From Deferribacteraceae bacterium V6Fe1 (GTDB lineage Bacteria > Chrysiogenota > Deferribacteres > Deferribacterales > Deferrivibrionaceae), in NCBI GenBank assembly GCA_022813675.1, contig CP063375.1, forward strand, positions 1,934,001 to 1,998,000: 64,000 nucleotides of DNA. The letters run 5' to 3'. Below, in pieces: positions 6,990 through 11,990 of the stretch (within the stretch, counting starts at the first letter, position 1; each line of letters opens with the position of its first letter). Below the pieces are notes generated by a model that saw nothing but the letters and a program-made list of their open reading frames with translations, did not search any database and was not told the origin of the DNA. A program made the translations under genes and the position numbers.

Positions 6990-7358
6990 TTATGCTAATA
7001 TTCTGTCTTTATTTATAGGTCTATTTTTTTCATCAACCTGAATAACTATAGGTTTGTAATTTTCCAGCTCTTCTTCATCATAAAGTCCATAAGAAACAAT
7101 AATTACCATATCCCCAGGCTGTACCATTCTGGCAGCAGCACCATTCAAACAAATTTCACCGCCGCCTCTTTTACCGTCAATAGTGTAAGTTGAAAATCTT
7201 GCACCATTTGTTATGTTATAAATATCCACTTTTTCGTAAGTCTTAATATTTGCTAAGTCCATCAAATCCTTATCAATTGTAATACTCCCCTCATAATGAA
7301 GGTCTGCATCTGTAACTGTAGCTCTGTGAATCTTTGATTTAAACATCTCTCTTTTCAT
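6990..7358 (-). CDS. panD: Aspartate 1-decarboxylase (pyruvoyl enzyme)
   Basis: Makes beta-alanine from aspartate for pantothenate and coenzyme A. The 122-residue proenzyme has the self-cleavage site at the expected place: Y22-E23-G24-S25, where S25 becomes the pyruvoyl group after cleavage. Active-site features K9 and Y58/T57 in the [10 protein letters not shown] region are present as in the family. It lies 9 bases after panC in a panB-panC-panD operon that covers the whole pantothenate branch apart from ketopantoate reductase (panE/ilvC), which is not in the window. Confidence 0.97.
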
Positions 7359-7367
7359 AGATCACTC

Positions 7368-8216
7368 CTAATTTATTTTAAACACATTATTATCTATAAG
7401 TCTTGCCTTTCCTACAAAAACTGCCAATGCCATCAAAAAATTACCATTTATCTCTTTTATATCTTCAAGTGTTTCAGGGTCAACAATTTCAATATAGTCA
7501 ATCTTAGTAAAAGGAAATCCTTCAATATAATTAGCTACCTCTCCCTTTATTTTATTTGAATCTTTGACACCCTTTGAAAGTAACTCTTCTACAAGTGCAA
7601 ATGATTTATTTAGAGAAAGTGCGGACATCCTCTGCTCTTCAGTCAAATAAACATTTCTGGAACTCATGGCAAGCCCGTCCTCTTCTCTTACAATCGGACA
7701 GCCAACAATATTTGTGTCTATATTTAAATCATCAACAACCCTTTTAATAACAAGGAGTTGCTGATAATCCTTTAACCCAAAATATGCATTATCAGGTGCT
7801 ACAATATTTAACAACTTTGTCACTACAGTGGCAACACCGTCAAAATGACCCGGACGACTTTTGCCGCAAAGTTTATCTGTAAGAATACTTAAAGAGACTT
7901 TTGTAAAAAATCCATTGGGATACATTTCTTGAACGCTTGGATAAAAAATGATATCACAGTCCTCTTTTTCTAAAAGAGATTTATCCCTCTCAAAATCACG
8001 TGGATATTTATCCAAATCCTCATTAGGCCCAAATTGGGTAGGGTTTACAAATATACTGCAAACAACGATATTATTTTCAGACTTTGCCTTCTTAATTAGG
8101 CTCAAATGCCCTTCGTGCAGATAACCCATTGTGGGGACAAAACCGATTTTCTTCCCCTCTGATTTAGCTTTTTTTATTGTCTTCCTTAAATCTTCAATTT
8201 TATTTATTACAATCAT
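7368..8216 (-). CDS. panC: Pantothenate synthetase
   Basis: Condenses pantoate and beta-alanine with ATP through a pantoyl-adenylate intermediate, in the cytoplasm. The 282 residues include the nucleotidyltransferase motif PTMGYLHEGH (H34 and H37 of the HIGH-like box), the FGLKDYQQL segment, and the KMSKS-equivalent MSSRN in the usual place. Length and motif order match the family. It sits 4 bases after the panB stop and 9 bases before panD. Confidence 0.97.
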   Translation of the reverse strand: MIVINKIEDLRKTIKKAKSEGKKIGFVPTMGYLHEGHLSLIKKAKSENNIVVCSIFVNPTQFGPNEDLDKYPRDFERDKSLLEKEDCDIIFYPSVQEMYPNGFFTKVSLSILTDKLCGKSRPGHFDGVATVVTKLLNIVAPDNAYFGLKDYQQLLVIKRVVDDLNIDTNIVGCPIVREEDGLAMSSRNVYLTEEQRMSALSLNKSFALVEELLSKGVKDSNKIKGEVANYIEGFPFTKIDYIEIVDPETLEDIKEINGNFLMALAVFVGKARLIDNNVFKIN

Positions 8217-8220
8217 ATTG

Positions 8221-9033
8221 TTACCTCAAAAATGAGTGCTTTTCTTCAGGAAAAATCGAACCCTTTACTTCAGACATATAGTTCTTTGTAGCCTCTCTTA
8301 TAACATTACCAACACTTGCATACTGTTTTACAAATTTCGGTGTGAAATCATCGAAAATTCCAAATATATCCTGAAAGACCAAAATCTGACCGTCACAATT
8401 GACACCGGCTCCGATACCGATTGTCGGAATCTTTATGTTTTCAGTTATTTTTTTACTCACATCCGCAATAACACCTTCAAGGACAATAGAAAAAGCTCCT
8501 GCCTCTTCAATGGCAATTGCGTCTTCCAAAAGTTTTTCATCATTATCCCTGCCTTGAATCTTATACCCACCTTGAGCTAAAACCTGCTGAGGCATAAGCC
8601 CAATATGTCCCATTACATTTATTCCCATACTAACGAGCTTTTTCACTAACGGAGCAATCTCTTTCCCACCTTCAAGCTTTATAGCTTCCGCTCCACTTTC
8701 TTTAATTACCCTTACGGCATTGTTTATTGCCTGCTCATCGGAAACCTGATAACTACCAAAAGGCATATCCGCCACAAGAAATGCCCTGCTAATGGCTCTT
8801 TTTACCGATTTAGTGTGATATATAATCTCATCAACCGTAACAGGGATGGTGCTTTCATATCCGTTCATTACCATACCAAGCGAATCGCCAACTAAAATCA
8901 AATCAATACCGCTTTCGTCGAGAAGTTTTGCAGAAGAATAGTCATATGCCGTAAGGCATGCTATCTTCTCATTATTCTTCATCCTCTTAATATGGTTAAC
9001 AGTTATTTTTTTTATTTCAACATGTTTACTCAA
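8221..9033 (-). CDS. panB: 3-methyl-2-oxobutanoate hydroxymethyltransferase
   Basis: Adds a hydroxymethyl group from 5,10-methylenetetrahydrofolate to ketoisovalerate, the committed step to pantoate. The 270-residue TIM barrel contains LTAYDYSSAKLLDESGID, VGDSLGMVMNGYESTIPV (metal-binding Asp) and GIGAGVNCDGQILVFQD, all diagnostic. The start is a TTG at 9031-9033, chosen because GGAGG lies 6 bases upstream and the next ATG is 17 codons in. The gene follows a structured leader with an intrinsic terminator, so expression is probably controlled by premature termination. Confidence 0.96.
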   Translation of the reverse strand: MSKHVEIKKITVNHIKRMKNNEKIACLTAYDYSSAKLLDESGIDLILVGDSLGMVMNGYESTIPVTVDEIIYHTKSVKRAISRAFLVADMPFGSYQVSDEQAINNAVRVIKESGAEAIKLEGGKEIAPLVKKLVSMGINVMGHIGLMPQQVLAQGGYKIQGRDNDEKLLEDAIAIEEAGAFSIVLEGVIADVSKKITENIKIPTIGIGAGVNCDGQILVFQDIFGIFDDFTPKFVKQYASVGNVIREATKNYMSEVKGSIFPEEKHSFLR

Positions 9034-9048
9034 ATTAAACCTCCATAC

Positions 9049-9079
9049 AAAAAAAGCCTTCCGGCATAACCGGAAGGCT
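9049..9079 (-). terminator. Attenuator-type terminator in the panB leader
   Basis: On the minus strand AGCCTTCCGG, a 5-base loop and CCGGAAGGCT are followed by seven T. It lies upstream of, and very near, the panB ribosome-binding site (GGAGG, 9040-9044), so it terminates before the gene rather than after one. GGCTG in the loop of the second leader hairpin (9117-9121) can pair with CAGCC (9076-9080) at the base of this stem, a possible antiterminator contact. Confidence 0.85.
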
Positions 9080-9109
9080 GTAATTTATCATATATAACAG
9101 TCTTCATGT

Positions 9110-9184
9110 CTCGGTCCAGCCGGATCCAAGCATACTTTAATTACTTTAAAAACTTAAAAGGTATGCACCGCTGTTGCATCCAAG
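9110..9184 (-). promoter_or_regulatory. Tandem hairpin leader of panBCD, resembling the pan RNA motif
   Basis: Two hairpins each start CTTGGAT on the minus strand. Copy 1 (9153-9184) pairs GGATGCA with TGCAT-A-CC around the loop ACAGCGG, leaving a bulged A. Copy 2 (9110-9130) pairs CTTGG-A-TCC with GGA-CCGAG around GGCT, again with a bulged A. GCATAC (9161-9166) in copy 1 could instead pair with GTATGC (9130-9135) before copy 2, so the folds are partly exclusive. As I recall it, the published pan motif upstream of pantothenate genes is a tandem hairpin with bulged adenosines. The assignment is by resemblance, position and gene context only. Confidence 0.6.
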
Positions 9185-9187
9185 GGG

Positions 9188-9216
9188 TTAATATATATAT
9201 TTACTCAATTTGTCAA
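9188..9216 (-). promoter_or_regulatory. Promoter of the panBCD leader
   Basis: Minus strand TTGACA (9211-9216) with TATTAA at 17 bases (9188-9193); a TATATT register at 15 bases is the alternative. Transcription would start a few bases before the first leader hairpin, giving a leader of about 150 bases. Confidence 0.75.
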
Positions 9217-9247: not shown

Positions 9248-9784
9248 TTAAAAGCTTGGTGGCGTACCAACCCAAAATGCTCTTAATTTTTCGTCAGTCT
9301 TGTTTTTAAGTTTATGGGGCAAATTTGAACTAAAATAAATTGATTCCCCCTCTTTTAACACATACTCATCATTTCCGATAACAACAGTTAAAACACCTTT
9401 TATAACGTAACCAAACTCTTCGCCAGTATGCCTGTAATAATCTGAACCGGTTTCAGAATGAGGGTCTATCTCAACTATCATTGGCTCTAACTTTCTATTG
9501 ACAAGTTTTGTTGCCAAAAAGGCCATTGAAAGACTTTTATTTTTCAAAATCTTATAGTCGCTCTCAGTAAATTTATGCACAATATTTCTCTCGTCTTCAA
9601 AGAGTTCACTTATAGTGGTACCAAGAGCGTAGCAAATCTTTTTTAGTGATGATATAGACGGGGAGTTCTTACCGTTCTCAATCTGACTAATAAAACTCTT
9701 TGTAAACCCAGTTTTTTGAGAAATATCCTCAAGGGTCATGCCTAACTTTTTTCTAATATCTTTTAATTTAGCTCCATAACTCAT
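9248..9784 (-). CDS. XRE-family regulator with C-terminal cupin domain
   Basis: A 178-residue transcription regulator. An N-terminal helix-turn-helix (about 5-60: LGMTLEDISQKTGFTKSFIS followed by QIENGKNSPS) is joined to a cupin (about 105-175, with HTGEEFGYVIKG and FSSNLPHKL supplying His/Glu ligands). Proteins of this form sense small metabolites and often control amino-acid, polyamine or sulfur metabolism; the ligand here is unknown. I choose the ATG at 9784 over one five codons earlier because AAGGAG sits 5 bases upstream of it. It is divergent from the kinase at 9831 with only 46 bases between, so it may control that operon. Confidence 0.88.
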   Translation of the reverse strand: MSYGAKLKDIRKKLGMTLEDISQKTGFTKSFISQIENGKNSPSISSLKKICYALGTTISELFEDERNIVHKFTESDYKILKNKSLSMAFLATKLVNRKLEPMIVEIDPHSETGSDYYRHTGEEFGYVIKGVLTVVIGNDEYVLKEGESIYFSSNLPHKLKNKTDEKLRAFWVGTPPSF

Positions 9785-10893: not shown

Positions 10894-11418
10894 ATGGAAA
10901 ATGTTGAAAAAAGACTCAAATTAAAACCAAAAATAGGAAACAATGCTTTTATAGCAAAAAACGCTATAATCCTTGGAGATGTCACAATAGGAGATAATGT
11001 AAGTATTTGGTATAACGTAGTAATACGAGGGGATGTAAATTATATCAAAATAGGCAAAGACTCAAATATCCAAGATGGAGCCATAATACATGTTACCAAA
11101 GACAAATTTCCTACAGAAATAGGTGAAAGGGTCACTATCGCTCACAGTGTAACCTTACACGGATGTAAAATAGAAGATGACTGCCTAATCGGAATTGGTG
11201 CCATAATTATGGATAATTCAGTTATTGCAAAAAATTCACTTGTAGCAGCCGGCGCTGTAGTTCCCCCCAATAAAAATTATCCAGAAAACAGTTTAATCGT
11301 GGGCAATCCTGCAAAAGTAGCAAGAGAGCTTACAGAAAAGGATTTAGAAATGATTAGGAGCAACGCGGATAGATATTTACACTATAAAGATATCTATCTT
11401 AAACTTAACATAGATTAG
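10894..11418 (+). CDS. Gamma-carbonic-anhydrase-like left-handed beta-helix protein
   Basis: A 174-residue hexapeptide-repeat protein of the YrdA/PaaY/Cam-like family. Repeats run from about residue 18 to 135, and the three histidines expected to bind a metal are present in AIIHVT, TIAHSVTLHGC. A C-terminal helix caps the barrel. Members bind zinc or iron as trimers, but many show little carbonic anhydrase activity, so the reaction is uncertain. AAAGG lies 6 bases before the ATG. It ends convergently with the 11415-11990 gene, overlapping it by 4 bases. Confidence 0.85.
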   Translation: MENVEKRLKLKPKIGNNAFIAKNAIILGDVTIGDNVSIWYNVVIRGDVNYIKIGKDSNIQDGAIIHVTKDKFPTEIGERVTIAHSVTLHGCKIEDDCLIGIGAIIMDNSVIAKNSLVAAGAVVPPNKNYPENSLIVGNPAKVARELTEKDLEMIRSNADRYLHYKDIYLKLNID

Positions 11419-11990
11419 CTTTTAAACTGTATATTCTTAACCCTGACAGACAAAACCTTTGAATCATCATTAATCAAACTTTCAGCATAATGAGGGATTT
11501 TAGAATTGAAAGCTATACTGTCCCCCTCTTTTAATTCAACGGTATTGTTATTCAAATACATTCTGATATTTCCGCTTAATAAAAACATAAACTCATAACC
11601 TTCATGACTAAACAACTTCTTTTCGCCGGAACTTGGCTTGATAGAAACGATGAAGGTTTCAAACAGGTCATTATTTTTAATAGATGCCAATTCTTCGTAA
11701 AGATAGCCATGCTTAGCACCTTCTCTAAAAACAAATTTCCTTTTATCTGACGGAACAAGATAGTAATCTTTATAATTTATTTCCTCTTCAAAAAAATAAG
11801 TCATCTTAACGTTCAGCACCTTCGCAATTTTGGCAAGGGTATTTATCGGAGGAGTTACCACATTATTTTCAATCTGAGAAATTAAAGCTTTAGAAAAGCC
11901 GGTCATATTGGCAACATCCTGTAAAGTCAACTCCCTTTCATTCCTCAACTTTTTTACTCTCTCACCAATATTTATCTCAAAATTATTCAT
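11415..11990 (-). CDS. Second XRE-family regulator with cupin domain
   Basis: A 191-residue protein built like the one at 9248-9784: helix-turn-helix (about 9-62, LTLQDVANMTGFSKALISQI) and C-terminal cupin (about 118-185, with FSHEGYEFMFLLSG and FNSKIPHYAES). The two share the plan but differ clearly in sequence, so they are old paralogues, not a recent duplication. They bracket the kinase and beta-helix genes. A TTGACA occurs at 12051-12056 upstream, but no strong -10 is seen. The ligand is unknown. Confidence 0.86.
   Translation of the reverse strand: MNNFEINIGERVKKLRNERELTLQDVANMTGFSKALISQIENNVVTPPINTLAKIAKVLNVKMTYFFEEEINYKDYYLVPSDKRKFVFREGAKHGYLYEELASIKNNDLFETFIVSIKPSSGEKKLFSHEGYEFMFLLSGNIRMYLNNNTVELKEGDSIAFNSKIPHYAESLINDDSKVLSVRVKNIQFKS

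What the first reader, a model, noticed from the sequence alone, without database searches (positions are those of the whole stretch)
9049..9216. panBCD leader: tandem bulged-A hairpins plus a terminator, a candidate pan-motif RNA switch
A good promoter, two hairpins starting CTTGGAT with a bulged A each, an alternative GCATAC/GTATGC pairing, and a strong intrinsic terminator directly before the ribosome-binding site together look like a transcription-attenuating riboswitch. The known pan motif lies upstream of the same genes and, as I remember, is tandem with bulged adenosines. If the host is outside the phyla where the motif was described, this widens its range and shows a terminator-coupled version. 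GGCTG in hairpin 2 can pair with CAGCC of the terminator.
Basis: partly seen in the sequence, partly recalled or inferred. Interest (0 to 1): 0.65.

Follow-up and report, generated by a model that had tools for sequence, protein, structure and literature searches.

The report
pan RNA attenuator before panBCD genes
The stretch is a genuine "pan" RNA, a known regulatory RNA without a known ligand that sits in front of the vitamin B5 genes, here in a bacterial phylum not named in its original description; comparison with relatives suggests it switches the genes off by freeing a transcription stop signal.

Summary
Window 9102-9182 (minus) matches Rfam pan (RF01749) at 49.0 bits (cut-off 36.2). It lies before panB-panC-panD and is followed by a strong intrinsic terminator. 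Each hairpin has two bulged adenosines, not one. The host belongs to Deferribacterota; the 2010 description names Chloroflexi, Firmicutes and delta-Proteobacteria. A pan-shaped hairpin, mostly single, precedes panB in 28 of 41 panB leaders of the phylum (7 of 10 pairs with two-sided compensatory change); the tandem Rfam model passes only 3 of 51 genomes. A model built from these single hairpins found 10 genomes outside the phylum, all upstream of panB. Inside and outside the phylum, the 3' strand of pan plus its flank pairs with the terminator (or with sequence before the ribosome-binding site) more than shuffled or swapped partners do; the 5' strand does not. Best reading: a three-state attenuator in which pan is the anti-antiterminator, so whatever binds pan turns panBCD off. 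The binder is unknown. Known kind, new member; the switching rule and the single-hairpin form are the useful additions.

The parts
9211..9216 (-). TTGACA -35 box; candidate -10 TATATT at 9190-9195 (15-nt spacer)
   Evidence: sequence; TTGACA-like box in most leaders of relatives; not listed by the consensus scan
9160..9182 (-). pan hairpin 1: GG-AUGCA-[A9174]-C-AGCG-G-UGCAU-[A9162]-CC
   Evidence: Rfam alignment; kept in both congeners G012 and G013
9105..9134 (-). pan hairpin 2: UAUG-CUUGG-[A9125]-UCC-GGCU-GGA-CCGAG-[A9109]-CAUG
   Evidence: Rfam alignment; covariation over 24 distinct relatives; own model R1 hits genome 1943105-1943134 = window 9105-9134
9097..9105 (-). antiterminator 5' arm GAAG-A-CUGU, directly 3' of hairpin 2 (G9105 shared)
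   Evidence: duplex -8.0 kcal/mol, 0 of 300 linker shuffles as good; pairing probability 0.93-0.98 in the transcript cut before the terminator 3' arm
9073..9081 (-). antiterminator 3' arm ACAG-C-CUUC, overlapping the terminator 5' arm
9055..9079 (-). intrinsic terminator hairpin, U-run 9049-9055
   Evidence: terminators at the same place in 12 pan leaders of the phylum
9040..9044 (-). ribosome-binding site GGAGG, 6 nt before the TTG start at 9033
   Evidence: sequence
8221..9033 (-). panB, ketopantoate hydroxymethyltransferase
   Evidence: Pfam PF02548, E 2e-113
7368..8216 (-). panC, pantoate-beta-alanine ligase
   Evidence: Pfam PF02569, E 1.2e-111
6990..7358 (-). panD, aspartate decarboxylase
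   Evidence: Pfam PF02261, E 1.4e-52

Best explanation
A tandem pan RNA at the 5' end of the panBCD transcript works as a transcription attenuator with three competing structures: (a) the pan hairpin; (b) an antiterminator, in which the 3' strand of pan and the bases just after it pair with the 5' arm (or loop) of the terminator; (c) the terminator. When a binder, unknown, holds the pan hairpin closed, the antiterminator is disfavoured, the terminator folds and panBCD is off. When pan is free the antiterminator can win and the genes are read. In relatives without a terminator the same strand pairs with sequence before the ribosome-binding site, which suggests the same logic at translation. Shown: family membership, pan structure by covariation, terminator, pairing of the 3' strand beyond chance. 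Inferred: that binding stabilises pan, the direction OFF, and feedback by an end product of the pathway or by a protein that reports it.
For: Rfam hit above cut-off. Shape descriptor found in 28 of 41 panB leaders against 4.3 expected and 6 on the other strand. Seven of ten pairs with two-sided changes, 98.8% of cells paired, at most 47.1% when slid. Model R1 finds one site per genome in 25 of 51 phylum genomes, and 10 sites outside the phylum, all upstream of panB. Pan 3' strand plus 10 nt pairs downstream: Fisher p 2e-7 in the phylum and 1.5e-10 outside it; the 5' strand as control gives 0.98 and 0.64. Own partners beat swapped partners in all 20000 permutations. Folding of growing transcripts: pan opens when the terminator 5' arm appears and closes again with the full terminator in 14 of 16 leaders, against 100 of 240 swapped.
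Against: In the window itself the antiterminator shares only one base (G9105) with hairpin 2, so competition there is weak: predicted pan probability falls only to 0.34 for hairpin 2 alone and 0.49 with hairpin 1 included. G006, G009, G016, G038 and L081 do not show clean three-state behaviour (L084 was cut too early to judge). With only the 10-nt flank the cognate signal is weaker, 211 of 20000 permutations. Equilibrium folding ignores kinetics. 100 of 240 swapped pairs also behave as three-state, because the terminators resemble each other. The leaders are related, so the p values are optimistic.
Confidence: 0.72

Rival explanations
1. About the binder (compatible with the attenuator above): pan is a protein-binding site; a regulator, or an enzyme of the pathway, binds the bulged-A hairpin and so controls the terminator. 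The RNA itself senses no small molecule.
For: The authors of the motif suggested a dimeric protein-binding element from its simple tandem form (PMC2864571). The hairpin is only about 30 nt and mostly single in this phylum. An XRE-cupin ortholog occurs in 24 of the 28 pan genomes of the phylum and in none of the 13 panB genomes without pan.
Against: The XRE-cupin protein is of a DNA-binding type, is missing in f10 and G049 which have pan-shaped hairpins, and is not always adjacent; the co-occurrence may be common descent only. No protein was tested.
Confidence: 0.5
2. About the binder (compatible with the attenuator above): pan is a minimal metabolite riboswitch for CoA or a pathway intermediate.
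For: Found only before panB in every genome examined here, with strict bulged As and a platform of the kind riboswitches use. No natural CoA riboswitch is known (PMC9971707).
Against: Very small; the 2010 paper rates riboswitch status as '?'. In f10 three of the five pairs between the bulges differ (CUGAC/GUCAG), so mainly the bulged As and the geometry are fixed.
Confidence: 0.3
3. The terminator belongs to the upstream XRE-cupin gene, and the hairpins are incidental.
For: The XRE-cupin gene ends at 9248, co-oriented and close by.
Against: A TTGACA box lies between that gene and the hairpins. The terminator sits directly before the panB ribosome-binding site. Pan plus terminator also occurs where the upstream gene differs, for example L054 and L070. 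The hairpins covary.
Confidence: 0.04

Closest known systems
pan motif, Rfam RF01749 (Weinberg et al. 2010, PMC2864571)
   Same: Above the gathering score; two bulged As per hairpin; tandem; upstream of panB-panC-panD.
   Different: Host in Deferribacterota, not among the three taxa listed in 2010. Most relatives in the phylum carry one hairpin, not two, and fall below the Rfam cut-off. A switching strand is described here; the 2010 main text section on pan mentions no expression platform.
PyrR-binding attenuators (RF00515), compared for mechanism only
   Same: A small hairpin acts as anti-antiterminator upstream of an intrinsic terminator (from general knowledge).
   Different: 24.2 bits against a cut-off of 54: not a member. 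Different genes.

Membership tests
pan motif RF01749 | covariance-model score at or above the gathering score (36.2 bits) | tested here: met
   49.0 bits, full model 1-92
[quoted passage not shown]
   A9174/A9162 and A9125/A9109; both A columns invariant in 24 relatives
pan motif RF01749 | mostly tandem | tested here: met
   two units in the window and both congeners; one unit found in the rest of the phylum
pan motif RF01749 | upstream of panB, panC or aspartate decarboxylase operons | tested here: met
   Pfam hits for all three genes
pan motif RF01749 | compensatory changes supporting the stem | tested here: met
   7 of 10 pairs with two-sided changes, 0 of 500 shuffles reach the covariation score
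riboswitch (functional class) | direct binding of a metabolite to the RNA | not testable with these tools
   needs probing or calorimetry
riboswitch (functional class) | expression platform exclusive with the aptamer | tested here: inconclusive
   strong across leaders, weak overlap in the window itself
PyrR binding site RF00515 | covariance-model score at or above the gathering score (54 bits) | tested here: not met
   24.2 bits, E 0.54

The most novel reading that the evidence does not exclude
pan is a roughly 30-nt single-hairpin sensor of CoA or a precursor, with its 3' strand as the general switching strand, and would fill the missing CoA riboswitch class; the tandem form of this genus would then be two such sensors in series.
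Probability: 0.25. Interest if true: 0.85.

Novelty: new member of a known kind. Interest (0 to 1): 0.45.

Why it matters
pan is an orphan RNA: no ligand or binder was found in the papers searched. A rule for which strand switches, and in which direction, makes it testable: bound pan should lower panB expression. Single-hairpin versions give a minimal construct for binding assays. No natural CoA riboswitch is known (PMC9971707), and pan is an obvious candidate that can be tested in a compact form. The tandem Rfam model misses most single-hairpin copies, so the range of pan is understated.

Tried and rejected
GGCTG (hairpin 2 loop) with CAGCC (terminator): the loop is GGCA in G012 and GACA in G013, and G013 lacks CAGCC, so not conserved. 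GCATAC/GTATGC between H1 and H2: kept in G012, but G013 has AUACGC, so not conserved; it does appear in one predicted fold of the cut transcript. PyrR, L10 leader, sX2 and other sub-threshold Rfam hits: all below their cut-offs, taken as chance. Testing the antiterminator leader by leader with linker shuffles gave mostly non-significant single p values; only the combined and swapped-partner tests are strong. Paper searches for experiments on pan found only annotations in transcriptomes (PMC4634765, PMC4342826). The host's exact species could not be named; a guess at Deferrivibrio was not confirmed.

Full report
Observation. On the minus strand the window carries, in order, a TTGACA box, two hairpins, a linker, a strong terminator with seven Ts, GGAGG and a TTG start of panB, then panC and panD. 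RF01749 (pan) matches 9102-9182 at 49.0 bits, cut-off 36.2. In the Rfam alignment both hairpins have the full pan form: outer stem, bulged A on the 3' side, five pairs, bulged A on the 5' side, inner stem. The fold is 3.3 sd more stable than shuffles.

Host. panB relatives at 67-81% identity are in MAGs titled Deferribacteraceae or Deferribacterales; the closest, L007, lies on a contig of the same length (50735) as the contig of congener G013. The 2010 description lists Chloroflexi, Firmicutes and delta-Proteobacteria. Whether Rfam's own full set already holds Deferribacterota sequences could not be checked.

Spread in the phylum. RF01749 passes its cut-off only in the three genomes of the window's genus and scores just below it in three others, of 51. 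panB is present in 41. A descriptor of the pan shape, with only the two As fixed in sequence, finds one copy in 28 of the 41 leaders, against 4.3 expected from shuffles and 6 on the opposite strand. Outside the window's genus only a single hairpin was found. The alignment of 24 distinct units shows 7 of 10 pairs with changes on both sides, 98.8% of cells paired, and at most 47.1% in slid controls. In f10, the most distant family, the helix between the bulges is CUGAC/GUCAG (or CUGGC/GUCAG) in place of CUUGG/CCGAG, with both As kept. Thirteen panB leaders, of f6, g13, g15 and G050, have no pan hairpin.

Outside the phylum. R1, built only from these units, finds one site per genome in 25 of 51 phylum genomes, all in panB leaders; the presence is partly circular, the absence of other sites is not. 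Among the other genomes sampled it finds 10 sites, and RF01749 finds 9; together 14 genomes, all directly upstream of panB. Six of these are missed by RF01749. This is an independent test of the model, and it shows that single-hairpin pan is under-reported by the tandem Rfam model.

Switching strand. In terminator leaders of the phylum the bases directly after GAGAC pair with the base of the terminator: GAAG.CUGU/ACAG.CUUC here, GAAGG/CCUUC in G013, GGCUAU/AUAGCC in f3, GGCUU/GAGCC in G014 and G016. In f5, which has no terminator, the same strand pairs downstream, for example GAGaCUUAAC/GUUAAGcCUC in g6 next to CUCCC, which can pair with the GGGAG ribosome-binding site (the last step read by eye). 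In G049 the outer stem abuts the ribosome-binding site (by eye). Tested against shuffled downstream sequence, the combined p is 2e-7 in 15 phylum leaders, with 0.98 for the 5' strand. The hypothesis was formed on the phylum; in 13 leaders outside it the combined p is 1.5e-10, control 0.64. Own partners beat swapped ones in all 20000 permutations over 27 leaders.

Dynamics. Equilibrium folding of growing transcripts shows pan closed, then opened as the terminator 5' arm appears, then closed again with the complete terminator, in 14 of 16 leaders compared with 100 of 240 swapped combinations. The swapped rate is high because terminators resemble each other, so this is support, not proof. In the window hairpin 2 falls to 0.34 and returns to 1.00.

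Mechanism. Since pan and the antiterminator compete for the same strand, anything that holds pan closed should favour termination: OFF on binding. This fits feedback control of pantothenate synthesis. The binder is not known; protein and metabolite both remain open. No step of this has been tested at the bench here.

Verdict. A real pan RNA, of a known kind, in a phylum beyond the original list, coupled to a terminator; the common single-hairpin form and the switching rule are the parts worth following up.

Noticed in passing
window 9248-9784 (-): XRE-HTH plus cupin regulator gene ending 65 nt upstream of the pan hairpins; orthologs (62-100% identity) in 24 of 28 pan-bearing genomes of the phylum and in none of the 13 panB genomes without pan; often adjacent to panB. 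A possible regulator, or shared descent.
   Followed up: partly
window 11415-11990 (-): A second XRE-cupin protein, a paralogue at about 34% identity, 2 kb away.
   Followed up: no
L010, L011, L012 (f10 genomes G002, G003, G001): Diverged pan-shaped hairpin GG-CUGAC-A-CC ... GG-GUCAG-A-CC right before panB, next to an AGAAAGG or TGAAAGG stretch; possibly translational control.
   Followed up: partly
L018 (G049): pan hairpin whose outer stem runs into the panB ribosome-binding site GAGG, with no terminator.
   Followed up: partly
L058 (G113): Two pan hairpins set well apart before panB in a genome outside the phylum.
   Followed up: no
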